A DNA stretch of 64,000 nt from Spirosoma profusum (GTDB taxonomy: Bacteria > Bacteroidota > Bacteroidia > Cytophagales > Spirosomataceae): assembly GCF_014699005.1 (NCBI RefSeq), contig NZ_JACWZY010000013.1, positions 62,001 to 126,000 of the forward strand. Direction: 5' to 3'. Each line of letters opens with the position of its first letter. Position 1 is the stretch's first letter. The position numbers were made by a program, and so were the translations under genes. Under the pieces are notes generated by a model. That model was not told the origin of the DNA and ran no database searches. It saw only the letters and a program-made list of their open reading frames with translations. Below are positions 723-61,297 of the stretch, piece by piece.

Positions 723-850
723 GGCCCTGACAGGCTCCGGCCGCTTCGGCGGTCCGATGTCGGAGTCGCGGTAGCGACTAATGGGATAGCTACAACACAT
801 CCGCTAACTTCGACATCGGACCGCCGAAGCGGCCGGAGCCTGTCGAGGCC
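723..850. repeat. Long inverted repeat between convergent genes
   Basis: Two 40-bp arms (723-762 and 811-850) are complementary except for two adjacent positions. The GC-rich arm contains GGCTCCGGCCGCTTCGGCGG. The loop holds a smaller hairpin (AGTCGC...GCGACT). The right arm ends exactly where the stop codon of the minus-strand winged-helix gene (851-853) begins. There is no T-run, so it is not a textbook intrinsic terminator. Confidence 0.85.
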
Positions 851-1150
851 TTATAAATTCTTGATAAACGCTTCCAGTGCGTTCAGGTGGTCGGTAAACG
901 CCTGTTGCCCAGCCGGAGTGGCCGAGTATGTCGTGTTGGGTTTGCGCCCGACAAACTGCTTTTGAACCGATACGTAGTTTAATTCCTCTAACGCGCGCAG
1001 ATGGGTGGCGAGGTTGCCGTCGGTGAGGCCGAGCAACTCTTTCAGCGCGTTGAAACTCAGGGAATCATTGACCATCAGAACCGACATGATGCTCAGGCGC
1101 GCTTTGCTTTCAAAAGCTTTATTAAACTGAGCCAGCAGGTCGTTCATCAT
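851..1150 (-). CDS. Winged-helix DNA-binding regulator (HTH_34-like)
   Basis: A 99-residue protein that is almost entirely one winged-helix domain: helix FESKARLSIMSVLMVNDSLSF, recognition region LKELLGLTDGNLATHLRALEE, and wing YVSVQKQFVGRKPNTTYSATPAG. This matches the MarR/ArsR-related 'winged helix DNA-binding domain' (HTH_34) family of roughly 100 residues that lacks an effector domain. It begins ATGATG, so the start may be three bases later. It overlaps the 3' end of the preceding membrane-protein gene by 29 bp and is surely co-transcribed with it. Such regulator/membrane pairs are common in Bacteroidota; the signal sensed is unknown. Confidence 0.8.
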   Translation of the reverse strand: MMNDLLAQFNKAFESKARLSIMSVLMVNDSLSFNALKELLGLTDGNLATHLRALEELNYVSVQKQFVGRKPNTTYSATPAGQQAFTDHLNALEAFIKNL

Positions 1151-1796
1151 GGGTTACATTCCGTTCGTATTTATAATACATGGCCATACCATACCCGATG
1201 TGCAGTACGCCAAAACCAATCGCCCAGGTCAATAAATTATAACCAGGGAAACAGATCGACAGCAACCCCAGGCCAATTTCGCAATACGCCAGCGATTCGA
1301 CATCGCGAAACGTGTATTTACTACCGTTCAGCAAAGCTAATCCATAAAATATAAGCGTCGCAGGAAAAGCCAGCCAGATGAGGTTATAATAGAGCAGTGC
1401 GAGGCAAAACACGCCACCCGTAGCCAGCGGTACCACCAATGCCCAAAGGAGTCGTTGCGATGACTTGTTCCAGACGCGCAAACCCTGCCGTCGGGCTTTC
1501 CGGACGGTGAAATACGTACCAGAGAGCAGTGCCAGCACCAGTACGTAGAGAGCTACTTTTACCACAAATTCTACTACAGTCTGGTTCGTTGCGTCGTCGT
1601 AACTTTTTTGCCGGTCGTAACTTAGCACGGTGAACCAGTTTGTACGCAGGCGCATGTACACAGCCAGGGCGCCCGCCATCGCCACCAGCCCCGCCGATAC
1701 GCCAGATAAACCACTTAACGACAGGAATTTGGAGGAACGCTCCATCAGACTGCGGATTTCCGTCAGTGTTTGCAGGTGTTCGTGCGATTCGCGCAT
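1122..1796 (-). CDS. Multi-pass membrane protein paired with winged-helix regulator
   Basis: 224 residues with about six hydrophobic segments: near 30-48 (GVSAGLVAMAGALAVY), 77-97, 115-135, 138-155, 170-185 and 188-208. The N-terminal ~25 residues are soluble and charged, and a periplasmic-looking loop (TNWFTVLSYDRQKSYDDATNQT) follows the first segment. I do not recognise an enzymatic motif. It is the first gene of a two-gene unit whose second member, the winged-helix protein, overlaps it by 29 bp. The tight coupling suggests that it is the target or partner of that regulator, but its function is unknown. Confidence 0.65.
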   Translation of the reverse strand: MRESHEHLQTLTEIRSLMERSSKFLSLSGLSGVSAGLVAMAGALAVYMRLRTNWFTVLSYDRQKSYDDATNQTVVEFVVKVALYVLVLALLSGTYFTVRKARRQGLRVWNKSSQRLLWALVVPLATGGVFCLALLYYNLIWLAFPATLIFYGLALLNGSKYTFRDVESLAYCEIGLGLLSICFPGYNLLTWAIGFGVLHIGYGMAMYYKYERNVTHDERPAGSV

Positions 1797-1799
1797 GAT

Positions 1800-1833
1800 T
1801 AAAGAGTGAAAGAGTTAATGAGTGAAAAAGTGC
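1800..1833. repeat. Single arm of the GAGTGAA-type repeat
   Basis: This stretch carries the AAAGAGTGAAAGAGTTAATGAGTGA-type heptad pattern seen as full hairpins at 19373-19476, 23961-24048 and 59261-59347. Here only one arm is present, and it lies across the 3' end of the kinase gene, encoding its last residues. Confidence 0.6.
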
Positions 1834-2261
1834 TGCAACGGATGTTGAATGACTGAATTAGTAACTGTGATTTGAGCGTGTGAATAAAATGGGTTTCCTG
1901 CTACGTCGAGCAATCGTCCGCCGAGGATAATCAGGCCGACAATCGCTGCTGCAATGGCTACCAGCAGCACAGCGCCCGACGATAAATCTTTAACGGCTTT
2001 AATTTGTGGATGGATGTCCGGCGATACAAAATCGCAAAGTTTTTCAATGGCAGTATTGAAGGCTTCGGCCGCCCAGACCAGCCCAAACTGCGTCAGGATG
2101 ATGGCCCACTCGATCCGGCTGAGTTGCAGGGCGAATCCTGCCAGTACCACCAGAATGGCGATGAGCAGGTGAACTTTGGCGTTGTTCTCGAATCGAAACA
2201 AATCCATAATTCCCTGCCCGGCAAATCGAAAACTGCGAATAACTTTTCGGAAATCAATCAT
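1815..2261 (-). CDS. dgkA: Diacylglycerol kinase / undecaprenol kinase family
   Basis: An integral-membrane lipid kinase of the prokaryotic DgkA fold, which phosphorylates diacylglycerol or undecaprenol at the inner membrane. It has the family signature AEAFNTAIEKLCDFVSPDIHP followed by IKAVKDLSSGAVLL, containing the conserved E, N, D and K residues, with helices at about 33-50, 52-70 and 98-118. The catalytic part ends near residue 122. The last ~24 residues (FYSHAQITVTNSVIQHPLQH...) look unlike the family, and their 3' part is encoded by a GAGTGAA-type repeat arm, so the tail is probably a repeat-derived extension. Whether the lipid substrate is DAG or undecaprenol cannot be decided. Confidence 0.85.
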   Translation of the reverse strand: MIDFRKVIRSFRFAGQGIMDLFRFENNAKVHLLIAILVVLAGFALQLSRIEWAIILTQFGLVWAAEAFNTAIEKLCDFVSPDIHPQIKAVKDLSSGAVLLVAIAAAIVGLIILGGRLLDVAGNPFYSHAQITVTNSVIQHPLQHFFTH

Positions 2262-2319
2262 TCCGCAAATGTATCGTTAATGCTTGCATTTTATAGCCAG
2301 AAATTGGTTCGTTTGTCGC

Positions 2320-3039
2320 TCACAAACGCGCATCGTCCTCATGCTCAACGTACCAGTAAAACGCTACGTAGAGAATTACCAGTACGAAACCATAAGCCAT
2401 AGTCAACTTAACGCTCAGATGGTCTTGATACGCAAAAGCCACGGCTTTGGTCAGCGAAGAGGGTTGAGTCAGTATATCCCAGCTGTTCCATCGACCAAAA
2501 CGCCCCAGGTAAATGCCGAATCCCGACAATACCTGGCTGGCTAGTATCAACATCCAACTTAGCCACGAAACCATGAGTGGACGTAGCATTCGATGCACGA
2601 GAAGCGTCGAATATAAGCCAATTAACAAGCCTGTAAATGCGTATAAAAAGATTGACATGGTATCGAACCAGAGCAATGGCTGCGGAATGTGGTTGATGTG
2701 ATATAAGTCAGTGATGATATACGGAGCGTTTGGTAAAAAGGCTAGCCAGAGCAGCAGTGAGCCAATCAGTAACCACCGACTCCGAAACCATGAAACCGTA
2801 TTGCCGTTTGCCCGTAAATCACGTAGCACCAGAACGACCCCTAATGGAAACCAGGCCAGAAACAGGTTCCAGTCGAGCATGAGAAAATACCACCAGTTTC
2901 CGGTCAGCAAGCCACGTAGCGTGACCAAACTAAATCCGGCAACTGTGAGCAGGGCCAACGCCCATAAGCCTTTACCAGGCCGGGCGTCGCGTGGTAGTGA
3001 CAAGTTTGAATAATGCGTAGGATGTGATTGTGTTTGCAT
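2320..3039 (-). CDS. DUF1361 membrane protein
   Basis: A polytopic membrane protein with the DUF1361 hallmarks: LFLAWFPLGVVLVLRD, WLAFLPNAPYIITDLYHI and WFDTMSIFLYAFTGLLIGLYSTLLVHRML. The open frame continues upstream to 3081, but residues before MQTQSHPTHYSNLS look unlike the family, so I prefer the ATG at 3039. About six to seven transmembrane segments. The function of the family is unknown. It is divergent from mazG, with a 260-bp spacer carrying hairpins. Confidence 0.8.
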   Translation of the reverse strand: MQTQSHPTHYSNLSLPRDARPGKGLWALALLTVAGFSLVTLRGLLTGNWWYFLMLDWNLFLAWFPLGVVLVLRDLRANGNTVSWFRSRWLLIGSLLLWLAFLPNAPYIITDLYHINHIPQPLLWFDTMSIFLYAFTGLLIGLYSTLLVHRMLRPLMVSWLSWMLILASQVLSGFGIYLGRFGRWNSWDILTQPSSLTKAVAFAYQDHLSVKLTMAYGFVLVILYVAFYWYVEHEDDARL

Positions 3040-3135
3040 AGTAAAAGTACTTTGTGTTGCAAAGTAAATGAAGTAAATCAATACATGTCAATATGGAGTG
3101 AAAAAAAGTTTGTGAGCGAGTGGTACGTGTCGGGT

Positions 3136-3204
3136 TCTTTTAACCGTAAAGAGCTCTGAGATGTACGCAAAGGTTCACGAGTAATTCTATTTGCGGTTAA
3201 AAGA
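3136..3204. repeat. Imperfect inverted repeat upstream of mazG
   Basis: TCTTTTAACCGTAAA (3136-3150) pairs with TTTGCGGTTAAAAGA (3190-3204) apart from one position. It sits in the 260-bp spacer between the divergent DUF1361 and mazG genes, where I see no gene. Confidence 0.6.
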
Positions 3205-3263
3205 GTCTTCTCGTTTTTCTCTTCGCCATTTCCCCCGTTTTCGTTAGTTTTACCAAACACAAA

Positions 3264-3294
3264 CGGTACGTGAGAGAAATTCTCTTACGTACCG
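3264..3294 (+). promoter_or_regulatory. Stem-loop abutting the mazG start codon
   Basis: CGGTACGTGAGAGA (3264-3277), a 3-nt loop AAT, and TCTCTTACGTACCG (3281-3294) form a 14-bp stem with one G-U pair in RNA. It ends four nucleotides before the first mazG ATG (3299) and would cover the ribosome landing region. There is no T-run. A second in-frame ATG lies at 3308. Confidence 0.6.
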
Positions 3295-3298
3295 ATTT

Positions 3299-4147
3299 AT
3301 GAAATCAATGAAGGAATTTCAGGATATGCCCCTCCGTCGTCAGCAACAACTGATGGCTTTTGATCGACTGCTGACTATTATGGATGAACTACGCGAACAG
3401 TGCCCCTGGGACCGTAAACAAACCATGGACAGCCTCCGCCACCTCACCATCGAAGAAACCTATGAACTTTCCGACGCCATTCTGGAGAAGAATAATGCGG
3501 AAATATGTAAGGAGTTGGGTGACATCCAGTTACATCTGGTTTTTTACGCAAAAATTGCTTCAGAAGCCAGCACCAGCTCGCCCGATCATTTCGACATGGC
3601 CGACGTACTGAATCGGGTTTGCGATAAACTCATTAGCCGCCATCCGCATATTTACGGCGACACCGTGGCCGAAACCGAAGAACAGGTAAAAGCCAACTGG
3701 GAGCAACTTAAATTGAAAGAAGGGAACAAGTCGGTGCTGGGTGGCGTACCGGGTTCACTGCCGGCACTCGTCAAAGCCATGCGCATTCAGGAAAAAGCAC
3801 GAGGTGCGGGCTTCGACTGGGACGAGAAGGAGCAGGTTTGGGAGAAAGTAGAGGAGGAAATGCAGGAGTTTAAAGAAGAATTTAACGTATCGTCCAGCCA
3901 AACTATCGACGTCCAGCGAGCCGAAGGCGAGTTTGGTGATTTGTTATTTTCATTGGTCAACTACGCTCGTTTTATCGACATAAATCCTGAAACAGCTTTG
4001 GAGCGGACAAACAAGAAATTCATCAAACGCTTTCAGTATCTGGAGGAGCAGGCGCGGGCCAACGGCAAAACGTTAAGCGAAATGACGCTAGCTGAGATGG
4101 ACGTGTACTGGAACGAAGCTAAATCCCGGTTCAGACAATCCTATTAA
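3299..4147 (+). CDS. mazG: Nucleoside triphosphate pyrophosphohydrolase MazG
   Basis: Hydrolyses NTPs/dNTPs to NMP and pyrophosphate (cytosolic house-cleaning). The first MazG domain has CPWDRKQTMDSLRHLTIEETYELSDAI with the metal-binding EExxE-type glutamates, then ELGDIQLHLVFYAKIA. The second domain has FDWDEKEQVWEKVEEEMQEFKEEF and EFGDLLFSLVNYAR. Length 282 matches two-domain MazG proteins (~260-280). The last residues (KSRFRQSY) and the stop codon are encoded by a fragment of the CCGGGATTTA-type repeat, so the natural C-terminus has been replaced or extended. The first or the fourth codon could be the start. Confidence 0.93.
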   Translation: MKSMKEFQDMPLRRQQQLMAFDRLLTIMDELREQCPWDRKQTMDSLRHLTIEETYELSDAILEKNNAEICKELGDIQLHLVFYAKIASEASTSSPDHFDMADVLNRVCDKLISRHPHIYGDTVAETEEQVKANWEQLKLKEGNKSVLGGVPGSLPALVKAMRIQEKARGAGFDWDEKEQVWEKVEEEMQEFKEEFNVSSSQTIDVQRAEGEFGDLLFSLVNYARFIDINPETALERTNKKFIKRFQYLEEQARANGKTLSEMTLAEMDVYWNEAKSRFRQSY

Positions 4148-4174
4148 TCCCTAAATCTGTTAAATCCCCGGTTG
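4121..4174. repeat. Partial CCGGGATTTA-family repeat at mazG 3' end
   Basis: AAATCCCGGTTCAGACAATC followed by TAAATCTGTTAAATCC. The segment GGTTCAGACAATCCTATTAA is identical to one at 54681-54700 beside ispD. Only right-arm sequence is present. It encodes the last codons of mazG and ends just before the next gene. Confidence 0.7.
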
Positions 4175-4177
4175 AAA

Positions 4178-4939: not shown

Positions 4940-5086
4940 TTCTACGCGCATTCTTCCAGAGAACGTAGTGATACCCGACTAAAATTGGGCAATACTACGT
5001 CGAACAGATTCCGCAATTCTGCGCTAAAACCGCTACGTTTATTCGCCGACTTTTGGGAAGTTTTCACCCTAAATCAACTTCTCAAA

Positions 5087-5425: not shown

Positions 5426-5430
5426 TTAAC

Positions 5431-9000: not shown

Positions 9001-9484
9001 TACGTTCACCGTGCTGGGTACTGCATCGCCAGTAGTCTCCAGCACCAGTGTAATCATTACGTCGGGTGGCTCTGCCACGCTCAATGCAACCGGATGTACA
9101 GGTGTTGGTGCTACGTTGAAATGGTACCAGACTGCCGATAACGTAGCGGTAAGTATGCCTGTTTCGCCAACCGTTACGACGCAGTATTACGCTCGCTGTC
9201 AGCAGACTGCCAGTTCGGGAGTTTGCCTTAGTGTGCCTAGTCAGAATGTTACAGTAACGGTCGTAACCCCAACGGCATTCAGCTCGGCCCAGACGGGTAA
9301 CTGGAACGTACCGACGACCTGGGATTGTAACTGTATTCCCAATGGTACGTTGCCAGTTCAGATTATGAGCACACACGTAGTAACCGTTCCTACCGCCTAT
9401 ACCGGACAGGCGAAAAAACTGAAATTTACCGGATCGGGGAAAGTCCGGCTGGAAGGGACGGGAAAAGTGAATATTGTGAATTAG
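6026..9484 (+). CDS. Secreted M36 (fungalysin) metallopeptidase with surface modules
   Basis: A large extracellular zinc endopeptidase. ATG 6026 is chosen because it begins a clear signal peptide (VLRISCCVLVLMMGMVDAYAQ); the frame is open further upstream to 5858 without such a signal. Order: signal, FTP-type propeptide (YHVYFNQAYQSVEVYNRMM...), M36 catalytic domain with HEYGH near residues 464-468 and the downstream glutamate in EQGGEGWSDFLAL, then Ig/PKD-like repeats rich in Thr and Ser, and a C-terminal module GNWNVPTTWDCNCIPNG...RLEGTGKVNIVN. Total 1152 residues. I do not see a typical type IX sorting domain; the terminal module may do that job. Propeptide plus catalytic domain make the family call firm. 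Confidence 0.9.
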   Translation: MLNIYRISRSVLRISCCVLVLMMGMVDAYAQIEIETARQYVAANMQQQQLTPPDIDGLLLSSAYKSPTTGWYHVYFNQAYQSVEVYNRMMNVVLMDKQVSYTNHNFIAGIDRIAKTGTSKSMISPVVALQKAAANVGLASTNLLPIQELATAKLADGTLTKAVYSLTNLSNEKINVKLYWLPVTTFTVEKKQTAINKLALTWQVRFLTKDGKHGWNIHVDATSGEILQKKDAIISCNFGTSTHLAAPHECVDGTQPDGAKYFGIQKKSGAFTGNGYTVFDYPIEGPTFGPRTESVMPYARFAPAGVGPGTTNGWHDDGVTSYTTTRGNNVYAQEDIDDNDQPGASPQSATLDFTYPYTFGLNTAVGNRDAAITNLFYWNNLIHDVLWKFGFDEPSGNFQNSNIQGLGGLGNDYVIADVQDGGGTNNANFFTDNDGIRGRMQMYLWNTSSTYQPDGDFDNGIITHEYGHGWSTRLTGGPANSSCLDNAEQGGEGWSDFLALMLTTNWSSLSANVASANIPRGVGTYSLGQPTNGVGIRDYPYSYDMDNVNGNVTYAKVGDADFAIPHGIGSIWATMLWDMTWEIIMQDNHIEQNIYTTPSSITAMRGNIAALKLVNEGLRMQPCSPSFVQARDAILQADQMLFGGRYHCAIGRAFARRGLGAGASTGVSSNDRLVTESFAPIDGPALSSPITATVCSNTLFTYNATSTTANTTISWVRMPVTGVSNGSAISSSAAINETLINTTTSPVVVRYVFTLSAPSAQCSTQQTIKVTVYPSIVPIVGSYSVCQDASVPTGAGLVVPTQISNLVNGALTTGSPTYARAANDDVTTYNTGTTVYYQSFTFVAPASGPQTFEVTASTFPDNDSYLSLYQTSFNPASPATNFLRGDDDIDFFEGLYLSKLTHTLVAGSTYILVVGTFYSGITGSFTLQATDQGFQLGPPNWFTAPSGGSPVFSGTVFNPVGVGGSGVPNTNTPGTTVFYVASPNQSICRTATTFTVLGTASPVVSSTSVIITSGGSATLNATGCTGVGATLKWYQTADNVAVSMPVSPTVTTQYYARCQQTASSGVCLSVPSQNVTVTVVTPTAFSSAQTGNWNVPTTWDCNCIPNGTLPVQIMSTHVVTVPTAYTGQAKKLKFTGSGKVRLEGTGKVNIVN

Positions 9485-9486
9485 GC

Positions 9487-9551
9487 TAAAAGTCGACAGC
9501 CATTAGTCATCAGAATAACTAACGACTGACGACTAATGACTGTCGACTTTT
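9487..9551. repeat. Inverted repeat of the GACTAATGACT family
   Basis: AAAAGTCGACAGCCATTAGT pairs with ACTAATGACTGTCGACTTTT with one mismatch in this part and another further in. It begins two bases after the peptidase stop codon (9482-9484) and ends five bases before the guaB stop on the other strand, so it fills the convergent gap. Confidence 0.8.
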
Positions 9552-9556
9552 AACCC

Positions 9557-11029: not shown

Positions 11030-11115
11030 GAGCAAATAGCAGGTTGTGTTATTTGCCGGGTAAAATTACAAAAAAATTCTGAACCGGGCTGTCTGAACCA
11101 GGATTTTTTCAGGAT

Positions 11116-11232
11116 TCTGAACCGGGATTTAGCTGATTGACGGATTTGCAGGATTTTGCTTTTTATTAAGCGCTTCGAGGAAGCGAAAGCAAAATCCTGC
11201 AAATCCGTCAATCAGCTAAATCCCGGTTCAGA
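11116..11232. repeat. CCGGGATTTAGC-family hairpin, perfect 45-bp arms
   Basis: Left arm 11116-11160 and right arm 11188-11232 are exact reverse complements over 45 bp. The outer end is TCTGAACCGGGATTTAGCTG. The 27-bp loop contains a small inner hairpin around CGCTTCGAGGAAGCG. Two extra copies of the border (TTCTGAACCGGG at 11078-11089 and TCTGAACCAGG at 11092-11102) precede it. The minus-strand DUF2141 stop codon (11228-11230) lies inside the right arm. Confidence 0.9.
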
Positions 11233-11656
11233 ACTTCTTCAGAGCAATCTGAATCGTTTTTCCACCATTGCCAACCGTGAATTGGCAATCACTGAATTTG
11301 GGTGCCGACATTTTAGGGCGAAAGTTATTGCTGAATCCGTACGGCTCTTTCGGAATACCAAACATTTTTTTGTCCATCTTGCCATTACTATTTTCGTCGT
11401 GAAAAATAGCGATGGCATACGTACCTGGCTCCACAGAAAAACTTGCCCGAACGGTCGCACTCTCAGCATCTACTTTTTTTCCATCAATGGGTTTCCCATT
11501 GGGGAACTCATTGCCAGGGGGAAACAAGGCTACAAAAACAGTTCCTTTCAACGGCTGGACGTTTTGAATTTCAACGGTTAGATTGGTTTTTTTTGGTGAC
11601 GACCGGGGGACGAAGGCCGTCATACACAGGCTTAGGGCGAAAAGGAGATAGCGCAT
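11228..11656 (-). CDS. DUF2141 secreted protein
   Basis: 142 residues with a signal peptide (MRYLLFALSLCMTAFVPRSS) and the DUF2141 core: LTVEIQNVQPLKGTVFVALF, EPGTYAIAIFHDENSNGKMD, and FGIPKEPYGFSNNFRPKMSAPKFSDCQFTV. The calcium-binding-like DENSNGKMD loop is the most conserved part of the family. Periplasmic or surface location is expected; the function is unknown. The stop codon is provided by the border of a hairpin repeat. It is divergent from recJ, with 40 bp between the two starts. Confidence 0.88.
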   Translation of the reverse strand: MRYLLFALSLCMTAFVPRSSPKKTNLTVEIQNVQPLKGTVFVALFPPGNEFPNGKPIDGKKVDAESATVRASFSVEPGTYAIAIFHDENSNGKMDKKMFGIPKEPYGFSNNFRPKMSAPKFSDCQFTVGNGGKTIQIALKKF

Positions 11657-11696: not shown

Positions 11697-13436
11697 ATGA
11701 TAGCCCAGCCGCACCCGCCTACCAAACGATGGATAACACGACCGTTCCCCGGTTCAGTAGAACAACAGGCTGCTATCGACTCTTTAACTCAATCGCTGGG
11801 TATTAGTTCAGCCCTGGCCGCATTGCTGGTGCAGCGTGAGGTTCATACCTACGATGAAGCCCGAACTTTTTTTCGGCCTGAAATGGGTCATCTGCACGAC
11901 CCGTTCATGATGAAAGACATGAACCGGGCGATTATGCGATTGCAGATGGCGATGCTGCCCGAAAAGCAGGAAAAAATCCTGATTTACGGCGATTATGATG
12001 TTGATGGCACTACGTCGGTGGCACTGGTTTATAGCTTTCTGAAAAACTATCATTCCGACATCGACTACTACATTCCGGATCGTTACAAGGAAGGATATGG
12101 CATTTCGAAGCAAGGCGTTTTGTGGGCGGCTGAAAATGGGTTCACGCTCATTATTGCCCTCGACTGTGGCATTAAATCCATCGAACGTATCGCCGAGGCA
12201 AAAGCATTGGGCGTCGATTTTATTATCTGCGATCACCACCGCCCCGGCTCTGAACTGCCCGATGCCGCTGCCGTGCTGGACCCAAAACGCGACGACTGTG
12301 GGTATCCGTACAAAGAACTGAGTGGTTGCGGAGTAGGTTTCAAACTGCTTCAGGCGTTTTGCATGAACGCTTCCATTCCATTGGATGCCTTACTTCCAAG
12401 TCTGGATTTAGTGGCCGTCAGTATTGCATCCGATATAGTGCCGCTGACGGGCGAGAACCGGGTAATGGCGTACTATGGCTTAAAATATCTTAACACGGCA
12501 CCACGTACCGGGCTGAAAGCGTTAATCAGAGTAGCAGGTTTTGCGCGGGAATTGGATATTACTAATCTGGTATTTGGTCTGGGGCCACGTATCAATGCCG
12601 CTGGTCGGATTCAACATGCCAAAGCCGCCGTACAGTTGTTGTTGGCCGAATCTGAGGACGAAGCCGATACGTTTGCGATGGCAATTAACAAGCATAACAA
12701 CAGCCGACGCGAGTTCGATAGCAGCATGACCGAACAAGCGCTGGCCATGATTCGCGAGAGCGAAACGTTGCTGAACGCCAAAAGTACTGTTTTGTACGAT
12801 GCTACGTGGCATAAGGGGGTTATCGGTATTGTGGCTTCCCGTTGCATTGAGCATTTTCACCGTCCGACCATTATTCTGACGCAGTCGAACGATAAGGCGG
12901 CTGGGTCGGCAAGGTCGGTGCCGGGTTTCGATGTATACGAAGCGATTGAAGAGTGTGCTGAACTCTTGGAGCAGTTTGGCGGGCATACATTCGCAGCAGG
13001 TATGACCATGCCCGTGGATAACATCGACGCGTTCCGGCTTAAGTTCGAAGAAGTCGTTTCGCGCAAAATAAAAGAAGAGCATCTGACGCCCATGATTGAC
13101 ATCGATCTCCCACTCGATTTCAGCGAGATTACCGATAAACTCGTCAGGATTGTGAAGCAGATGGGCCCGTTTGGCCCGCACAACATGCAGCCGGTGTTCA
13201 TGACCGAGGGCGTTTATCTGGTCGAAGAACCGATTATTATGAAAGAGAAACACCTGAAAATCAGCGTTCGGCAGCAGCGTTCAGGGCACATATTAACGGC
13301 TGTTGGGTTTGGGCTGGCGCACCTGGCTCGTCAACTTCGTAAGGGAGAACCGTTCGCCATCTGTTATCAGGTCGAGCAGAATTTTTTTAACGGCAACGTA
13401 CTACTCCAGTTGATGCTGAAGGATATAAAAGTTTAG
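11697..13436 (+). CDS. recJ: Single-stranded-DNA-specific exonuclease RecJ
   Basis: A 5'-3' ssDNA exonuclease used in recombination and mismatch/base-excision repair. 579 residues, the usual bacterial length. Motifs: DYDVDGTTSVAL (DHH domain motif I), ALDCGIKS, CDHHRPG (the DHH motif), ASDIVPLTGENR, then the DHHA1 domain with KGVIGIVASR and GGHTFAAGMTM, and the C-terminal OB-like domain. All catalytic Asp/His motifs are present. The stop codon TAG is also the first bases of a downstream inverted repeat. Confidence 0.96.
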   Translation: MIAQPHPPTKRWITRPFPGSVEQQAAIDSLTQSLGISSALAALLVQREVHTYDEARTFFRPEMGHLHDPFMMKDMNRAIMRLQMAMLPEKQEKILIYGDYDVDGTTSVALVYSFLKNYHSDIDYYIPDRYKEGYGISKQGVLWAAENGFTLIIALDCGIKSIERIAEAKALGVDFIICDHHRPGSELPDAAAVLDPKRDDCGYPYKELSGCGVGFKLLQAFCMNASIPLDALLPSLDLVAVSIASDIVPLTGENRVMAYYGLKYLNTAPRTGLKALIRVAGFARELDITNLVFGLGPRINAAGRIQHAKAAVQLLLAESEDEADTFAMAINKHNNSRREFDSSMTEQALAMIRESETLLNAKSTVLYDATWHKGVIGIVASRCIEHFHRPTIILTQSNDKAAGSARSVPGFDVYEAIEECAELLEQFGGHTFAAGMTMPVDNIDAFRLKFEEVVSRKIKEEHLTPMIDIDLPLDFSEITDKLVRIVKQMGPFGPHNMQPVFMTEGVYLVEEPIIMKEKHLKISVRQQRSGHILTAVGFGLAHLARQLRKGEPFAICYQVEQNFFNGNVLLQLMLKDIKV

Positions 13437-13525
13437 TCAATAATCGACAGTCACGGTCCGCCGTTGCGGTCAGTCTGCACAAATGAAGTAAGAGCTGTTA
13501 ACTATCGACCGTCAACTATTGACTG
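13435..13525. repeat. Imperfect inverted repeat after recJ
   Basis: AGTCAATAATCGACAGTC (from 13435) pairs with GACCGTCAACTATTGACT with three mismatches. It belongs to the GTCAATAGTC/GACTAATGAC family and starts within the recJ stop codon. A short GC-rich inner part (CGGTCCGCCGTTGCGGTC) lies in the loop. Confidence 0.65.
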
Positions 13526-18230: not shown

Positions 18231-19370
18231 TTACGTGATCACCCGAATTCCTGCTTTCACCTGCTCGACTTTGGTACGTAGCGCATTCAGTGAATTGTCC
18301 ATTACCGTTACGTGCCCCATTTTGCGGAAAGGTTTGGTGATGGCTTTTCCGTAGAAAAACGGGAAGACGCCGGGGATAGCCAGCAGATTTTCCAATCCTT
18401 CATAAACAGCCGGGCCGGTATAGCCGTCTTCGCCGAGGAGATTGACCATCGCGGCTGGTTGGTAGGCCGACGTATCGCCAAGCGGATAATTCAGAATAGC
18501 GCGCCAGTGCTGTTCAAACTGCGACGTTACGTTGGCCCGGATGGTGTGATGACCGCTATTGTGCGGGCGGGGAGCTACTTCGTTAATCAATACGTTACCG
18601 AGCTTATCCAGAAACAATTCGACAGCCAGCAGTCCCACAATACCGAAGGCATCGGCGGTACGTCGGGCAATGTCCTGCGCTTTCTGATTGATTTCAGGGG
18701 ATATTTCAGCAGGAGCAAAAAGGTATTCGACCAGATTTAATTCGGGATGAAATACCATCTCGACCGTTGGGAAAGTCTGGACTTCACCACGTTCATTTCG
18801 GGCGACAATGACAGCCAATTCCTTCTCAAAATCAACGGCTTTTTCCAGCACACCCGGCGCGTCGAACGCTTTACCAACATCGGCTACTGAGGCAATACGT
18901 TGCACACCACGGCCATCGTAGCCATCGCGGCCTAGTTTATGAAAAGCGGGAAGAAAATCAGGCTGTTGAATATCGACCATCGCTACGTCGGCGCGATTTT
19001 CGGTCAATACGTAGTCGGCAGTGGGGAGGTTATGGGCAGAATAGAACTGCTTCTGGAGCCGTTTATCCTGAATGATACGTATCACCGACGGTTGCGGAAA
19101 CACACGTTTACCTTCGCGTTCGAGGGCTTCAAGTGCATCCACGTTGACCCGTTCAATTTCAATCGTCAATACGTCAACCGCCTGCCCGAATTGATAAACC
19201 GTTTCGTAATCAGTCAGCGAACCCTGCGAAAATTGGGTGCATAAATGCCGACAGGATGCTTCTGCATCGGGGTCGAGTATGTGAACGCGGAGATTCCAGT
19301 CGACAGCTGCCTGTAAAAGCATCAGGCCAAGCTGCCCTCCGCCAAGAATACCAATTGTGGGAGTCAACAT
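18231..19370 (-). CDS. purK: 5-(carboxyamino)imidazole ribonucleotide synthase
   Basis: Uses ATP and bicarbonate to carboxylate AIR to N5-CAIR in purine synthesis. 379 residues, ATP-grasp fold: N-terminal GILGGGQLGLMLLQAA (PurK signature), IIQDKRLQKQFYSAHNLPTADY, KLGRDGYDGRGVQ glycine loop, VDFEKELAVIVARN, and the catalytic segment LAVELFLDKLGNVLINEVAPRPHNSGHHTI. A partner purE is not in the window. Confidence 0.95.
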   Translation of the reverse strand: MLTPTIGILGGGQLGLMLLQAAVDWNLRVHILDPDAEASCRHLCTQFSQGSLTDYETVYQFGQAVDVLTIEIERVNVDALEALEREGKRVFPQPSVIRIIQDKRLQKQFYSAHNLPTADYVLTENRADVAMVDIQQPDFLPAFHKLGRDGYDGRGVQRIASVADVGKAFDAPGVLEKAVDFEKELAVIVARNERGEVQTFPTVEMVFHPELNLVEYLFAPAEISPEINQKAQDIARRTADAFGIVGLLAVELFLDKLGNVLINEVAPRPHNSGHHTIRANVTSQFEQHWRAILNYPLGDTSAYQPAAMVNLLGEDGYTGPAVYEGLENLLAIPGVFPFFYGKAITKPFRKMGHVTVMDNSLNALRTKVEQVKAGIRVIT

Positions 19371-19372
19371 TT

Positions 19373-19476
19373 AAAGAGTGAAAGAGTGAAAGAGTGCCGC
19401 AACGGAGGTTGAAAGAGTGATTCTGACAGACAAAATTACTCTTTCGCTCTTTCACTCTTTCACTCTTTCACTCTTT
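19373..19476. repeat. GAGTGAAA heptad hairpin, perfect 24-bp arms
   Basis: Left arm 19373-19396 is three AAAGAGTG units; right arm 19453-19476 is CACTCTTT three times, an exact reverse complement. It fills the space between the stop of the DUF2807 gene (19478) and the purK start (19370). Confidence 0.88.
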
Positions 19477-23960: not shown

Positions 23961-24048
23961 GTGAATGAGTGAATTAGCGAATGAGTGAATAAAAACAATC
24001 GAATTGTATTCACTCATTCACTCATTAACTAATTCACTCATTCGCTCA
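23961..24048. repeat. GAATGAGTGAAT-type hairpin between tolC and macA-like genes
   Basis: GTGAATGAGTGAATTAGCGA pairs, with a small insertion in the right arm, to TATTCACTCATTC...AATTCACTCATTCGCTC. It starts two bases after the TolC-gene stop and ends two bases before the next ATG (24051). Confidence 0.8.
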
Positions 24049-25470: not shown

Positions 25471-25590
25471 TTCTGAACCGGGATTTAGCTGATTGATGGA
25501 TTTACACGATTTTTTTTTAATGAAAGCGCTTCTTTGAAGCGAAAAACAAAATCCTGAAAATCCATCAATCAGCTAAATCCCGGTTCAGAA
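25471..25590. repeat. CCGGGATTTAGC-family hairpin, perfect 33-bp outer arms
   Basis: Arms 25471-25503 and 25558-25590 are exact reverse complements (TTCTGAACCGGGATTTAGCT...). Inside, the left half reads TTTACACGATTTT and the right half AAAATCCTGAAAA, which do not pair: the element is a mosaic of two versions. It starts seven bases after the stop codon of the adaptor gene. Confidence 0.88.
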
Positions 25591-25603
25591 TTATCTTTAC
25601 TCC

Positions 25604-26608
25604 ATGAAACAATCACAACCCGTTCGGTTGACGATGGTTGGTGGAGGAAGCTGGGCGACGGCGCTCGTTAAAATTCTTTCCGAAAACAACGTCAGCATTA
25701 AATGGTGGCTTCGTAAATCGTCGGATGCGGAGCATATCAAAAAATTTGGGCACAATCCCAGCTACCTTAGCGATGTGCAGATTAACACCCGAAAAGTGAA
25801 GGTCTGTATCAAAATTCGAGAGGCTGTTCGTGATAGCGAATTTATTATTCTTGCCGTTCCGGCTGCGTTTATTGGCGACGCACTTACTGGGCTAAAACCT
25901 GAGCATTTTGCCGGGAAATGGGTGATTTCGGCTATAAAAGGAATGATTCCCTCGGCTAATCAGTTGGTAACTGATTGGGTGAGCAATCAATATGACGTAC
26001 CACCCGAACGAATGGCGGTGATCGCCGGCCCATGCCATGCCGAAGAAGTAGCCCTCGAAAAACAATCTTACCTCACCATTGCCTCGCCCGATTCCGACAG
26101 TGCAAAACGAGTGGCCGACCTGCTACGTTGCCGGTTTGTGCAGACAACTCCCGTCGATGACATTTACGGTATTGAATACGCAGCCGTCATGAAAAACATC
26201 ATTGCGCTGGCCTGTGGTATTACGCGGGGATTAGGCTACGGCGATAATTTCCAGGCAGTTCTGGTGTCGAATGCTATGCAGGAAATCCGTCGGTTCGTGG
26301 ATGCAGTTTATCCAAAACATCGTGATTTGAGTGGCTCGGCCTATCTCGGGGATTTGCTCGTGACGGCCTATTCACCGTTTAGCCGCAACCGCACGTTTGG
26401 TACGTTGATTGGTCGGGGCTACACGATTCAATCGGCTCAGGCCGAAATGAACATGATAGCTGAAGGATATTATGCTGTCAAAAGTATTCACGAAATCAAT
26501 AAGCAGTTCAACGTCGACATGCCCATCACGAGAGCAGTCTACTGTATTCTATATGAACGAGCTTCGCCAACGGCCGAAATGAATAAGCTGAAAGGGGAAT
26601 TGATGTAG
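25604..26608 (+). CDS. gpsA: NAD(P)-dependent glycerol-3-phosphate dehydrogenase
   Basis: Makes sn-glycerol 3-phosphate from DHAP for phospholipid synthesis. 334 residues. Rossmann loop MVGGGSWATALVKIL, NAD-binding AVPAAFIGDAL, VISAIKGMIP, AGPCHAEEVA, the catalytic lysine in EYAAVMKNIIALACGI, substrate region GSAYLGDLLVTAYSPFSRNRTFG, and C-terminal TRAVYCILYE. Complete. The stop codon is inside the following repeat. Confidence 0.95.
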   Translation: MKQSQPVRLTMVGGGSWATALVKILSENNVSIKWWLRKSSDAEHIKKFGHNPSYLSDVQINTRKVKVCIKIREAVRDSEFIILAVPAAFIGDALTGLKPEHFAGKWVISAIKGMIPSANQLVTDWVSNQYDVPPERMAVIAGPCHAEEVALEKQSYLTIASPDSDSAKRVADLLRCRFVQTTPVDDIYGIEYAAVMKNIIALACGITRGLGYGDNFQAVLVSNAMQEIRRFVDAVYPKHRDLSGSAYLGDLLVTAYSPFSRNRTFGTLIGRGYTIQSAQAEMNMIAEGYYAVKSIHEINKQFNVDMPITRAVYCILYERASPTAEMNKLKGELM

Positions 26609-26698
26609 AGACAAGGCATGCCTTGTCTCCCAGCCGGATGGTTTTGCTGATGCCTGCTATTGCTGACGCCAATGAGACAAGGCATGCCTTGTCTCTAC
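26605..26698. repeat. GTAGAGACAAGG double-palindrome repeat
   Basis: A 25-bp unit beginning GTAGAGACAAGGCATG (26605-26629) and its exact reverse complement (26674-26698). Each unit contains a 22-bp perfect palindrome centred on GCATGC, so several alternative hairpins can form. The gpsA stop TAG (26606-26608) is part of the left unit. Confidence 0.88.
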
Positions 26699-26708
26699 AA
26701 AACACAAT

Positions 26709-31942: not shown

Positions 31943-31949
31943 AGTTATC

Positions 31950-32013
31950 AGTCAATAGTCGGCAGTCGTTAATTAAGCGAATGCCAACGACTAACGACTG
32001 CCGACTATTGACT
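31950..32013. repeat. Inverted repeat between rimP and nusA, perfect 21-bp arms
   Basis: AGTCAATAGTCGGCAGTCGT... (31950-31970) and its exact reverse complement at 31993-32013, with a 22-bp loop. It begins seven bases after the rimP stop and ends ten bases before the nusA start. Confidence 0.88.
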
Positions 32014-32023
32014 AACTACTAAA

Positions 32024-36400: not shown

Positions 36401-36761
36401 TATCTACGACGCCATTAACGAAGTCAAAGATGCTATGGAAGGCTTGCTGGCACCGACCGTTGAAGAAGTGATTGTTGGAAATATTGAAGTTCGTGATGTG
36501 TTCAAAATCAGTAAAGTCGGTACGGTAGCAGGTTGCTACGTAACGGAAGGCAACATCAAACGGAACAATAAAATCCGGATCATTCGCGACTTCATCGTGA
36601 TTCACACCGGCGAAATCAGTGCCTTGAAACGCTTTAAGGAAGATGTCAATGAAGTGAAGTTCGGCTACGAATGTGGTCTAAGCATCAAGAACTTCAATGA
36701 TATTGAAGTTGGCGACGTAATTGAAAGCTTCGAACTGAAAGAAGTGAAGCGTACATTGTAA
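33450..36761 (+). CDS. infB: Translation initiation factor IF-2
   Basis: A GTPase that brings initiator tRNA to the 30S subunit. 1103 residues. IF2N domain ([31 protein letters not shown]), then a ~450-residue low-complexity region: Pro/Lys/Glu-rich (~65-280) followed by Asn/Gly/Arg-rich repeats (~300-480, including NNNNNNNN and [19 protein letters not shown]), then second IF2N-like region and the GTPase from ~residue 600 with [14 protein letters not shown] (G1), [20 protein letters not shown] (G3) and [10 protein letters not shown] (G4), followed by domains II-IV. The core is conventional. The N-terminal insert is expanded, as in many Bacteroidota, and the Asn run (AAT/AAC triplets at 34738-34762) may be length-variable. 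Confidence 0.97.
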
Positions 36762-36870
36762 ACCGGGATTTAACAGATTGAGGGATTTTCAGGATTTTGT
36801 TTTCGCTTCTTCGAAGTGCACCATTAACAAACAAAATCTTAAAAATCCCTCAATCTGTTAAATCCCGGTT
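36761..36870. repeat. CCGGGATTTA-family hairpin, 29-bp arms, after infB
   Basis: Arms 36761-36789 and 36842-36870 (AACCGGGATTTAACAGATTG...) are exact reverse complements. Its first base is the last base of the infB stop codon. Compared with the copies at 11116 and 25471, three bases in one arm differ and each has the matching change in the other arm. Confidence 0.9.
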
Positions 36871-36878: not shown

Positions 36879-36908
36879 TGCCCCGACTCTCTGAGCCGGG
36901 GCATTTTA
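36879..36908 (+). terminator. Terminator of the infB transcript
   Basis: TGCCCCG pairs with CGGGGCA across a loop with a few further pairs (CTC/GAG), followed by TTTTA. It sits just beyond the repeat element. Confidence 0.7.
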
Positions 36909-55394: not shown

Positions 55395-55414
55395 TAGATT
55401 GCGGAATAGTACAT

Positions 55415-56558: not shown

Positions 56559-56669
56559 GGGGTATCAATACGATAAAGAACGCTTTTTTGTAAAGGCCGC
56601 AAAGATAGTCAAAAACCCGGAAAATTTGACATCTTCCGGGTGATTTCCTTGCAAATTTCCGAGAAATAA

Positions 56670-57032: not shown

Positions 57033-57158
57033 AACGGTATAAAATTCGTCTGTTCATTAAACTCAAAAGCGAACAGATAGTTTTTAATGCATCAGTCCGA
57101 ACGTATCAGGCCGATTTACGCCTTTCTTTGCATCTGTTTTTCGTCTGCTTTTATCGCC

Positions 57159-58145
57159 ATGAACCGTTTCCTTACTAGTCCAGCCCAGCTTGTTCTACTC
57201 GGTTTGCTCGTTACGTCATGTAACACTGCCGACCCGGATTTCAGTGCGCCAACGATTCTCGAACGTATTACGTTCTCTGCCAGCCGCCAATACCCTGAGG
57301 GCATTACGTTTTCGAGCCGTCTTGATAAGTTCCTGGTCAGTTCCATTACACAGGGCAAAGTCGGCACTGTTGATCAGAATGGTCGGTATGAAGATTTTAT
57401 AAAAGATGACCCTATGCTGATCAGTGCTATTGGCATGAAGATTTGGGGTAATCAATTGTACGTCTGCAATGGCGATCAGGGCGTTTCGGTGAAGAGTACG
57501 GACAAAACGGCCCTTAAAACAGCGGGGTTATTTATTTATGATTTAACTACGGGGCAAAACATACGGCATATCGATTTGGCCGCTTTGGTACCAGGCGTCA
57601 ATCATTTTGCCAATGATCTGGCTTTCGATCCCGAGGGCAACGCCTACGTAACAGATTCATTTGCGCCCATCATTTACAAAGTGCCTGCCGACGCGAATCA
57701 ACTGGCTTTTAAATTCGTGGAATCACCCCTGTTTACGGGCACCGGCGTTAATTTGAACGGCATTGTTTATCACCCCGAAAAATTTCTGATTGTATCGAAA
57801 GCCAATGAAGGCAAACTCTTTAAAATCGATTTAGCGACCAGCACCATCACCGAAATCACCGGCGTAAACCTGCCCAGTGGAGATGGTATGCTGCTGTTCA
57901 ACAATGATTTATACGTAGTGAATAATCGGAAACGAGTGACCCAATTACGTAGCACCGATAGCTGGAAAACCGCTACCATTGTTAAAAGTGATTCACTAGG
58001 CTACGACCAGGCTACGACCAACGTACTAGTGGGCGACCAGATTTACACGCTCAACGCGCGCATTGGCGAAGTGAGCGCAGCCGTAGCAGCCAAAAATCCG
58101 GCCCAATTGCAAGCCAGCGAGTATAGTATTCAGCAGTTTAAATAG
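57159..58145 (+). CDS. Beta-propeller lipoprotein (SMP-30/NHL-like) 1
   Basis: 328 residues from ATG 57159, which gives a lipoprotein signal MNRFLTSPAQLVLLGLLVTSC; the frame is open to 57087. Mature protein is a propeller: ERITFSASRQYPEGITFSSRLDKFLVSSITQGKVGTVDQNG, VPGVNHFANDLAFDPEGNAYVTDSFAPIIYKV, LNGIVYHPEKFLIVSK and QATTNVLVGDQIYTLNARIGEVSAA. Resembles SMP-30/gluconolactonase-like folds, but catalytic metal ligands are uncertain. Next gene is its paralogue. Confidence 0.8.
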   Translation: MNRFLTSPAQLVLLGLLVTSCNTADPDFSAPTILERITFSASRQYPEGITFSSRLDKFLVSSITQGKVGTVDQNGRYEDFIKDDPMLISAIGMKIWGNQLYVCNGDQGVSVKSTDKTALKTAGLFIYDLTTGQNIRHIDLAALVPGVNHFANDLAFDPEGNAYVTDSFAPIIYKVPADANQLAFKFVESPLFTGTGVNLNGIVYHPEKFLIVSKANEGKLFKIDLATSTITEITGVNLPSGDGMLLFNNDLYVVNNRKRVTQLRSTDSWKTATIVKSDSLGYDQATTNVLVGDQIYTLNARIGEVSAAVAAKNPAQLQASEYSIQQFK

Positions 58146-58287
58146 CGTGGGGCATAAGGCTAAGGGCAGGGGGTAAGCGCTACTTCCCCTGCCCCTATAC
58201 CCTCTGCCATAGATTAAAAACAAATTAAAGGAACAGGCTGTTTAATTACCTCTGAATCAGTCATTGTTTCAACTTCCCTCAATGTTT

Positions 58288-59262
58288 ATGAAAACACGCT
58301 ACGTTTCCTGTCTGCTGGGAGGCTTTGCTGCCTTATGCCTGACTGCCTGCGAAGACCACCGGCTCAGCCCAAATGCTTCATTTCCCGACCGTATTGAGTT
58401 CATTGCTCAACGGCAGTACCCCGAAGGGATCGCTTACTCCGCCCAATTGGACCGCTTTATTATTACGTCTCTCACGCAGGGAAAAATTGGTACAGTGGAC
58501 ATCAACGGAAACTACGCCGATTTGATAACTCCTCCCGAACTGATTGCTGGTGTTGGTGTAAAGGTAGCTGACGGACGTATCTTCGTTTGCAACGGCGATC
58601 AGGGCGTATCGAGTAAAAGCTCACCAGCTACCACGAGAAGAACAGCCGAATTGTTGGTGTTCAATATCAACAGCCGTCAATTAGAGCGACGTACCGATCT
58701 CGATGATTTGCTGCCGGGGGTTAATCATTTTGCCAACGATTTGGCCATTCAGCCCGACGGAACGGTGTACGTAACAGATTCCTTTGCGCCGGTCATTTAT
58801 AGAGTAACGTCGAGCGGGCAGGCTAGTATTCTGGTCAACGATCCGCGCTTTGCCAGTGCTACGTTCGGCCTGAACGGCATTGTGTATCACTCCAATGGTT
58901 ACCTGATTGTGGCGAATACAGGCGCAGGAAAGCTGTATAAAGTGGATTTGCAGAACAATAATGCAATTTCAGAAGTAGGTGGCCTGCCCAGCCTGCCCGG
59001 CGATGGTCTAACGCTGTTAAACGGCGATTTATACGTAGTGACGGGCAGTGGGAGTAGAGTCGCGCAGGTACGTAGCACGGACAACTGGCAGACGGCCTCC
59101 ATCGTAAAATTCGACACCGATGGCTATTCGCAGGCTACTACCAACGTAGTGGTTAATGCCCGAGTTTTCACGTTGAATGCCCGCATCGGTGAAATCAGCG
59201 CGGCTATGGGGAATCCAGCCCTGTTGCAATCGAATAATTATAGTATTATGAAGTTTAGATAA
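58288..59262 (+). CDS. Beta-propeller lipoprotein (SMP-30/NHL-like) 2
   Basis: 324 residues from ATG 58288 (signal MKTRYVSCLLGGFAALCLTAC); ATGs at 58264 and 58282 are alternatives. Closely related to the upstream gene: shared LPGVNHFANDLAxxPxGxxYVTDSFAPxIY, LNGIVYH, GDGxxLxNxDLYVV and ATTNVxVxxxxxTLNARIGEISAAM. A tandem duplication with clear divergence. The stop codon TAA overlaps the first bases of a perfect 36-bp hairpin. Confidence 0.8.
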   Translation: MKTRYVSCLLGGFAALCLTACEDHRLSPNASFPDRIEFIAQRQYPEGIAYSAQLDRFIITSLTQGKIGTVDINGNYADLITPPELIAGVGVKVADGRIFVCNGDQGVSSKSSPATTRRTAELLVFNINSRQLERRTDLDDLLPGVNHFANDLAIQPDGTVYVTDSFAPVIYRVTSSGQASILVNDPRFASATFGLNGIVYHSNGYLIVANTGAGKLYKVDLQNNNAISEVGGLPSLPGDGLTLLNGDLYVVTGSGSRVAQVRSTDNWQTASIVKFDTDGYSQATTNVVVNARVFTLNARIGEISAAMGNPALLQSNNYSIMKFR

Positions 59263-59347
59263 AGCGCGAAAGAATGAAAGCGTGAAAGAGCGAAAAACAG
59301 CTTGCGTCTGCTTTTCGCTCTTTCACGCTTTCATTCTTTCGCGCTTT
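59261..59347. repeat. AAAGCGCGAAAG-type hairpin, perfect 36-bp arms
   Basis: Arms 59261-59296 (AAAGCGCGAAAGAATGAAAG...) and 59312-59347 are exact reverse complements with a 15-nt loop. They fill the gap between the converging stop codons (59260-59262 and 59352-59354). The heptad pattern (GAAAGxxT) relates it to the GAGTGAA repeats. Confidence 0.9.
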
Positions 59348-59351
59348 AAAA

Positions 59352-59993
59352 CTAGTCCGGCAACACTTTCAGCATAATGTCTTTGTAGAACACTTTGCTT
59401 TTGGGGTCGTGGCCTTGTAAAGCAACTGTGCCGTGGCTTAATTTCTTGGGTTTGCTGGAATTGCTGATACTGTCAGGCTCCATATAGTCGTTGATAACCT
59501 TGTCATTGACTTTGATAATCACCTTTTTGCCCTGCACAATGATGTGTTCGGTATACCACTCATCATCTTTCACAAACGTTTCTTTTACGTCCTGTAAACC
59601 GTATACGCTGCCGGTTTTGCGCCAGTCGGTATGCGTCTGATTTACCTGAATCTCATAGCCTTTAGAAGGCCAGCCGGAAGCTTGATACGCTGTATGGATA
59701 AACATGCCCGAGTTAGAACCTGGCATCGTTTTCACCTGCGCTTTCCATTCGAAATTCTTGAAATCGTGATTCCCTACCGGACCGTCATAGAACAGGTGCG
59801 CACGTGGGCCGTTCACCACAATGGCTCCATCCTGAATGGCAAATGTACCCGGACTTTCCTCGGTGATCTTCCAGCCGGTAAACGTCTTGCCGTCGAATAG
59901 GCTGACCCACCCATCGGCGGGCAGATGAGTAGTAAAGCTGAGGCAAAGGCCGAGCAGAAGCGAAATAGATAAAACAAACAAAGGGGTTTTCAT
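59352..59993 (-). CDS. DUF1080 secreted protein (3-keto-disaccharide hydrolase family)
   Basis: 213 residues with a signal peptide (MKTPLFVLSISLLLGLCLSF). DUF1080 core: GWVSLFDGKTFTGWKITEESPGTFAIQDGAIVVNG, FKNFEWKAQVKTMPGSNSGMFIHT, GYEIQVNQTHTDWRKTGSVYGLQDVKETFVKDDEWYTEHIIVQGKKVIIKVNDKVINDYMEP, and GTVALQGHDPKSKVFYKDIMLKVL. A lectin-like jelly roll; some family members act on 3-keto-sugars. The activity of this one is inferred from the family. Confidence 0.9.
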   Translation of the reverse strand: MKTPLFVLSISLLLGLCLSFTTHLPADGWVSLFDGKTFTGWKITEESPGTFAIQDGAIVVNGPRAHLFYDGPVGNHDFKNFEWKAQVKTMPGSNSGMFIHTAYQASGWPSKGYEIQVNQTHTDWRKTGSVYGLQDVKETFVKDDEWYTEHIIVQGKKVIIKVNDKVINDYMEPDSISNSSKPKKLSHGTVALQGHDPKSKVFYKDIMLKVLPD

Positions 59994-60365
59994 AAATAGG
60001 AGAAAATTAGTTTTGGCAATTATTCGGTTTCAAAAGCTAATACGTAGTAAAGCATCAACTTATTAAAAACTAACCAACGCTACGTTCAACCGTCAACGTA
60101 GCGAGTTGCGGACGTAGTAACTGATTAGTATAAAATGCGAGATCTGAGAGACCAGTATGTTACTTTTGTTACGTAGTGCTCCAATTAAAGTGCTTCTAAA
60201 ACTGATAAAATCTGCTACGTTTAGGCATTGGTCATTCTGTGGTTTCCTGCCTGAGTAAAATCTAATGCACAGAAAATCGCCGATTAATAGCTTTCTTCCA
60301 AAGCTATCCATCATTATATGCCTATCAATTCGTTACTTTGACAACTGAATCAACTGGAATTGTAA
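59994..60365. other. Intergenic region with dense ACGTA words
   Basis: No gene. Six copies of ACGTA/TACGT lie in 60001-60240, for example TACGTAGT and GGACGTAGT. No clear promoter, hairpin or RNA gene. A minus-strand open frame at 60093-60314 has no protein-like features. Confidence 0.6.
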
Positions 60366-61232
60366 ATGCGTTATTTTGTTTTGCTGGTTTATGGTCTGGT
60401 ACTGGCCTCATGTAAGCTAACGAATGTTGGGGTTAATTCGGTGGAGTTTGCGGACCCCACAGTTACCGCCGTTGCTGCTGGTTCGGTTGATGAAGCGTCG
60501 GGGATGGCCGATAGCTGGAGTATGCCAGGAAATCTCTGGATTAATCAGGATAGTGGTAGTCCGGCTGAATTGTCACTGCTGGGGCATGACGGTAAGGTAA
60601 AGGGTACGATTAAGATCCCAAGATTCGATAACCGCGACTGGGAAGAAATGGCCATTGGGCCGGGGCCGAAAGACGGTACGAACTACATCTATATTGGCGA
60701 AATCGGCGATAACCTGGGGCAGAATGTGCTCTGTCAGATTTACCGCATGTCTGAACCTGCTACGTTGCAAACCGCCATCACCGACGCCGAGCGGATTAAC
60801 TTTAAGTACCCGGATGGCGCTCGCGATGCCGAAGCCATGTTTGTTGATCCACAGACGAAAGACATTTATATTATCTCGAAACGGGAGGAGAACGTGCATC
60901 TCTACAGCCTTCCTTATCCACAGAATATCAACGAAGTAGCCACCGCCACGGCCTGGGGAGAAATACCTATGACTTTTGTAACGGGAGCCGCTATTTCGCC
61001 CGATGGGAGTGAAATTATAGTGCGTTCCTACACCGAAATCAGATACTGGAAACGCGAAGCTGGCCAATCCGTTGCCGATGCCCTGCAAAAAGGCACTAGC
61101 CGCCTTTTGCCGTATCGGGTCGAGCCGCAGGGCGAAGCCGTTTGTTTCGACAAAGACGGAAAAGGCTATTTTACCATTAGTGAGCGCGCTAATGCCTCGT
61201 CGACAAATCTGTATTATTATGCTAAAAAATAG
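60366..61232 (+). CDS. Beta-propeller lipoprotein, unknown
   Basis: 288 residues; lipoprotein signal MRYFVLLVYGLVLASC. Repeated beta segments: SGMADSWSMPGNLWINQDSGSPAELSLLG, IPRFDNRDWEEMAIG, YIYIGEIGDNLGQNVLCQIYRM, DGARDAEAMFVDPQTKDIYIISKREENVHLYSLPYP, GEAVCFDKDGKGYFTISE. The DWEEMAIG and DAEAMFVD segments recall esterase-like/phytase-like propellers, without a catalytic set I can name. The stop codon is part of the following hairpin. Confidence 0.7.
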   Translation: MRYFVLLVYGLVLASCKLTNVGVNSVEFADPTVTAVAAGSVDEASGMADSWSMPGNLWINQDSGSPAELSLLGHDGKVKGTIKIPRFDNRDWEEMAIGPGPKDGTNYIYIGEIGDNLGQNVLCQIYRMSEPATLQTAITDAERINFKYPDGARDAEAMFVDPQTKDIYIISKREENVHLYSLPYPQNINEVATATAWGEIPMTFVTGAAISPDGSEIIVRSYTEIRYWKREAGQSVADALQKGTSRLLPYRVEPQGEAVCFDKDGKGYFTISERANASSTNLYYYAKK

Positions 61233-61297
61233 TCGTTAGTCATTAGTCGTCTGTCAATAATATAGCTCTATCGACTGACGACTAATGACTAACGACT
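61231..61297. repeat. GTCGTTAGTC-type hairpin, perfect 21-bp arms
   Basis: Arms 61231-61251 (AGTCGTTAGTCATTAGTCGT...) and 61277-61297 are exact reverse complements with a 25-nt loop. The left arm starts in the stop codon of the propeller gene; the right arm ends 19 bp before the antiporter start. Confidence 0.9.

What the first reader, a model, noticed from the sequence alone, without database searches (positions are those of the whole stretch)
723..61297. Long hairpins of unrelated sequence sit at stop codons throughout the window
At least 12 inverted repeats with arms of 18-45 bp begin within a stop codon or within ten bases of it: 723-850, 9487-9551, 11116-11232, 13435-13525, 19373-19476, 23961-24048, 25471-25590, 26605-26698, 31950-32013, 36761-36870, 59261-59347 and 61231-61297. 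Many arms pair perfectly, and several elements exactly fill the gap between two genes. The sequences fall into at least four unrelated families. Most have no T-run, and true terminators coexist (e.g. 36879-36908 beyond the repeat at 36761). A stop-codon-proximal placement shared by unrelated families implies either a common insertion/generation mechanism or a shared function at mRNA 3' ends.
Basis: seen in the sequence. Interest (0 to 1): 0.75.

Follow-up and report, generated by a model that had tools for sequence, protein, structure and literature searches.

The report
Unrelated hairpin repeats at gene ends
In this Spirosoma-like bacterium many genes are followed, right after their stop codon, by a long DNA hairpin; the hairpins belong to several unrelated sequence families and differ between related species at the same gene, so the spot after the gene seems to last longer than the hairpin in it, a variation on the known bacterial REP repeats.

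Summary
Eleven of the 12 listed repeats are strong; 13435-13525 is weak. In 1.264 Mb of the same 8.73-Mb genome 183 inverted repeats could be placed against called genes: 122 in codirectional gaps, 51 convergent, 9 divergent, 1 inside a gene. In codirectional gaps the stop side is closer in 101 of 122; a 400-kb hold-out repeated this, and nearly every family shows it separately. They are mostly not intrinsic terminators: a T-run is found at 21 of 224 stop-facing sides, an A-run at 66.

Orthologous gaps in other Spirosoma species hold related, unrelated or no hairpins, starting at or just after the stop codon of a mostly conserved C-terminus. At gpsA and infB the hairpin lies between the stop and a terminator shared by relatives. 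Arms match better within an element than between copies for families A, B, C and E, as template switching would give.

Best reading: REP/BIME-like palindromes of several families in transcribed 3' regions. Stop-proximal REPs are published (PMC3733652). New here: turnover at fixed slots, untagged families without RAYT, and an apical word shared by unrelated arms. A selected mRNA function is unproven: G.U to A.C mismatches 150:139.

The parts
723..850 (.). long palindrome, arms 38-44 nt, GC-rich with CCGCTTCGGCGG mini-palindrome in the arm; convergent gap (the minus-strand gene at 851 is a script call)
9484..9555 (.). AGTC-type hairpin filling a convergent gap of 72 bp
11115..11233 (-). GGGATTTA-type (family A) hairpin, 48-nt perfect arms; its TTCTGA supplies the last codon and the stop of the minus-strand gene 11228-11656
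13435..13524 (+). weak AGTC-type quasi-palindrome after recJ; the same slot holds strong hairpins in G022, G008 and G003 (other sequences) and G032 (AGTC type)
19366..19476 (-). GAGTGAAA-type (family E) hairpin filling the gap between two minus-strand genes
23961..24043 (+). GAGTGAAA-type hairpin between outer-membrane efflux protein and HlyD genes; fold z of -2 or lower in 13 of 13 species examined
25471..25590 (+). family A hairpin between HlyD and gpsA; also in 3 relatives with paired changes
26604..26699 (+). family D (TGTAGAGACAAGGCATGCCTTGTCTC twice, inverted), GTAG at the foot; its TAG is the gpsA stop codon; lies before a terminator shared by relatives
31943..32020 (+). AGTC-type hairpin filling the rimP-nusA gap
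36761..36870 (+). family A hairpin flush with the infB stop
36879..36908 (+). infB terminator-like hairpin with T-rich tail; a counterpart is seen in the relatives shown
   Evidence: read by eye
59260..59348 (.). GAGTGAAA-type hairpin filling a convergent gap; unrelated hairpins in the slot of the 4 relatives compared
61231..61297 (+). AGTC-type hairpin starting inside the stop codon TAG; AGTC type, GAGTGAAA type, other or no hairpin in relatives

Best explanation
The hairpins are REP/BIME-like palindromic repeats of several unrelated families. They are gained, lost and replaced in the short transcribed region between a stop codon and the terminator or next gene (shown by species comparison). 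Their two arms are kept alike by DNA-level arm-to-arm copying such as replication template switching (inferred from arm statistics). They sit at stop codons because insertions inside genes and in 5' regions are removed by selection, while the 3' spacer tolerates, and perhaps rewards, a hairpin (inferred). Once there they can act as 3'-end or intercistronic RNA hairpins, for example shielding the upstream mRNA from 3' exonucleases or partly replacing a terminator at convergent genes (inferred, untested).
For: Placement: 1 of 183 elements inside genes, 9 in divergent gaps; stop side closer in 63 of 78 codirectional elements and 38 of 44 in the hold-out. Multi-copy families: family B arm pattern 308 + 295 matches in the own genome, 0 to 71 in 35 other Spirosoma genomes, reversed-pattern control 0. 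Slot turnover: after gpsA lie family D, AGTC type, another TGTAGAG palindrome, a further hairpin, or none, before a shared terminator; infB, recJ and other slots also differ between species. Arms: family B identical within an element in 22 of 30, between elements in 7.8% of pairs; A, B, C and E have lower within- than between-element arm distance. Convergent gaps with an element hold another terminator in 2 of 39, those without in 24 of 67. The published REP pattern is the same: close to 3' ends, between uni- and convergent genes, termini supplying TAG stops (PMC3733652 passages).
Against: No RAYT above the NF047646 cut-off in the own genome, and the loci of its Y1 hits carry no A, B, C, D or F motif and at most one short E motif. 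Most families lack the GTAG or CGTC tag at the foot. Arm homogenisation was not seen for families D and F. Some slots keep a similar type across species (efflux-HlyD, by eye 11 or 12 of 13), more like long vertical maintenance than mobility. The convergent-gap terminator contrast is partly built in, because an element fills the gap; in long codirectional gaps it was not significant (7 of 64 against 29 of 141). Stop proximity beyond the simple exclusion model suggests targeting or function as well.
Confidence: 0.6

Rival explanations
1. Selected mRNA 3'-end structures: hairpins after the stop protect the upstream message, form RNase III processing sites or insulate neighbouring cistrons, and selection keeps the fold while sequence drifts.
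For: Orthologous slots fold at z -3 or lower in 89 of 142 relative gaps where the window has an element, against 51 of 161 where it has none. Paired changes: 9 pairs changed on both sides in the HlyD-gpsA element, 1 of 500 shuffles as high. In three orthologous slots G.U mismatches exceed A.C, 51 to 28, species not independent. A hairpin fills the gap inside the rimP-nusA gene run, where a strong terminator would be harmful.
Against: Over 216 codirectional elements, sense-strand G.U against A.C mismatches are 150 to 139, p 0.56. Many orthologous slots lack a clear hairpin. Arm copying at the DNA level would give the same paired changes.
Confidence: 0.22
2. They are unusually long bidirectional transcription terminators.
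For: 51 of 183 lie in convergent gaps; convergent gaps with an element seldom have another terminator, 2 of 39 against 24 of 67.
Against: T-run at 21 of 224 stop-facing sides, A-run at 66; family B ends in GACAAAAA, the reverse of a terminator tail; a terminator shared by relatives follows the element at infB and gpsA; an element fills the rimP-nusA gap within a gene run.
Confidence: 0.1
3. Transposase-driven insertion aimed at stop codons or terminators.
For: Presence/absence between species and multi-copy families; family A at 11115 supplies a new last codon and stop.
Against: Unrelated families share the placement; no RAYT over the cut-off in the own genome and Y1 counts in the genus do not track family B (by eye); Y1 genes of relatives have other palindromes near them, 6 of 20 loci with CTAC/GTAG-ended ones.
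Confidence: 0.08

Closest known systems
REP / BIME / REPIN repeats (GTAG- and CGTC-tagged palindromes, PMC3733652)
   Same: palindromic, multi-copy, inverted pairs, intergenic, within about 20 bp of 3' ends, between unidirectional and convergent genes, several types in one genome, some supply the TAG stop, some nested inside other palindromes (passages)
   Different: most families here have no GTAG/CGTC foot, arms are long (18-54 nt), several are quasi-periodic, no RAYT over the cut-off in the genome, and orthologous slots show replacement by unrelated families
E. coli REPs within 15 nt of stop codons that lower translation (Liang, Rudd and Deutscher 2015; not held; seen only as cited in PMC12306157)
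   Same: distance to the stop codon
   Different: REP family of E. coli; effect on translation untested here
Template-switch-made hairpins (PMC8794818, abstract and start of the introduction)
   Same: mechanism that makes and repairs perfect stems and yields multi-base paired changes
   Different: described there for RNA genes; a genome-wide set at stop codons is not mentioned in what I read
Cyanobacterial STRR heptamer repeats (recalled, no call)
   Same: AGTC and GAGTGAAA families are quasi-heptameric or octameric
   Different: not compared by sequence here

Membership tests
REP/BIME | multi-copy palindromes, mostly intergenic | tested here: met
   1 of 183 inside genes; family B about 300 copies from 603 arm matches; 28 of 117 elements are single-copy in the first sample
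REP/BIME | lie 3' of genes, between codirectional and convergent genes | tested here: met
   122 codirectional, 51 convergent, 9 divergent
REP/BIME | GTAG or CGTC tag at the foot: family D | tested here: met
   TGTAG then perfect hairpin; the final G of GTAG pairs in the fold
REP/BIME | GTAG or CGTC tag at the foot: families A, B, C, E, F, G | tested here: not met
   arm sequences, by inspection
REP/BIME | associated RAYT gene flanked by the repeat | tested here: not met
   relatives (20 loci)
Intrinsic terminator | U-run directly after a GC-rich stem | tested here: not met
   5 T in 6 within the last 6 stem bases and 8 after: 21 of 224 stop-facing sides; the minority may be terminators
MITE of a DDE or Y1 transposon | target-site duplication and matching transposase ends | not tested
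   no compared relative over about 84% in infB, so no clean empty site
Template-switch hairpin | arms more alike within an element than between copies | tested here: inconclusive
   met for A, B, C, E; not for D, F
Selected RNA stem | sense-strand G.U tolerated more than A.C | tested here: inconclusive
   150:139 genome-wide, 51:28 in three slots

The most novel reading that the evidence does not exclude
A family-independent process makes new hairpins in place just after stop codons: a seed palindrome (the shared GCTGACGC apex) or a template switch in the transcribed 3' region copies flanking DNA into a second arm, so unrelated arms arise around similar cores and the slot, not the sequence, is what is inherited.
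Probability: 0.15. Interest if true: 0.8.

Novelty: new variant of a known kind. Interest (0 to 1): 0.5.

Why it matters
It gives a multi-species set of orthologous gene ends where unrelated hairpins replace each other after the same stop codon, which makes a long-open question about REPs testable: is the position selected because the RNA hairpin does something, or is it the only place such DNA can survive? It also shows covarying stems where a sense-strand mismatch test over the sampled genome gives no sign of RNA-level selection, a warning for reading covariation as proof of RNA function.

Tried and rejected
Rfam at gathering thresholds: no match in the window; tRNA/tmRNA: none. Ordinary terminators as the whole explanation: rejected for most elements. 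Element-supplied stop codons as the general rule: rejected; of the 10 slots read the C-terminus keeps its length and mostly its residues at 8 and varies more at two (after 11115 and after recJ), and stop codon usage next to elements is not TAG-rich (15 of 74, against 219 of 924 for all called genes). Clear exceptions are 11115 and 26604. RAYT-driven mobility: no RAYT over the cut-off in the own genome. Empty-site analysis in close strains: not possible; the nearest of the relatives compared is about 84% identical in infB. DNA folding of two family B arms gave no strong fold, so the small hairpin inside the arm rests on covariation only. Literature: searches by general words (20 of 131 papers listed), by Spirosoma/REP words (12 of 2,501 listed) and by repeat sequence (10 of 104 listed) showed no description of these families in the listed rows; absence from print is not established.

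Dropped or limited: one search failed to parse infB in 10 of 38 loci, so searches show 28; rimP-nusA was redone for 36 (z -2 or lower in 23 of 36). In one search, 2 of 68 hold-out repeats lacked a called gene on one side and were dropped. Searches used 12 of the 13 efflux-HlyD gaps (G023 left out because its hairpin looked unrelated). One search used 75 of the 80 loci. Genes were called by a home-made dicodon script, so start-side distances are rough. Inverted-repeat detection was ungapped. In one search the group labelled 'co' holds codirectional and convergent sides together (224). The 30 B elements were chosen by an exact pattern with free positions, which limits the variation seen; a looser choice of 46 gave arm distances 1.09 within and 3.45 between. 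Family labels are regular-expression labels. The slot fold counts include terminators; without the recJ, gpsA and infB slots the element slots give 66 of 104.
Full report
What the window is. The window is positions 62001-126000 of contig C4 of an 8.73-Mb genome in 81 contigs. NusA is 97% identical to Spirosoma lacussanchae and 96% to S. spitsbergense, and 35 other genomes of the same genus are held. So this is a Spirosoma-like member of the Cytophagales; the genus name is inferred from the named hits.

Noticed in passing
L046 near 3954, L047 near 15371, L049 near 9286; window 26604-26699: GCTGACGC sits at the apex of hairpins with unrelated arms (7 arm types, 15 elements).
   Followed up: partly
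G000, all contigs: Family B arms number 603 here against at most 71 in 35 relatives.
   Followed up: partly
L240, L241, L246, L247, L248, L254: In 6 of 20 Y1 transposase loci of relatives a long inverted repeat starts with CTAC (GTAG on the other strand), unlike the window families.
   Followed up: partly
L256 and L257: Weak Y1 hits with repeated TGTACCCGACAGCATCTTGCTGTCGG palindromes around them.
   Followed up: no
window about 25590-25603 and relatives: A pyrimidine-rich leader (like TTTCTTTTCTTTACCCC) just before gpsA recurs in 7 relatives, shorter in the window, while the hairpin slot before it changes.
   Followed up: no
L064 and L136: Record titles say Flavobacterium sp. SUN052 and Spirosoma fluviale (MAG), but NusA is 88% and 72% identical to the window's; the names may be wrong.
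   Followed up: no
L111: A Rufibacter locus has three hairpins sharing CGTTTAGGGGC; perhaps another repeat family outside Spirosoma.
   Followed up: no
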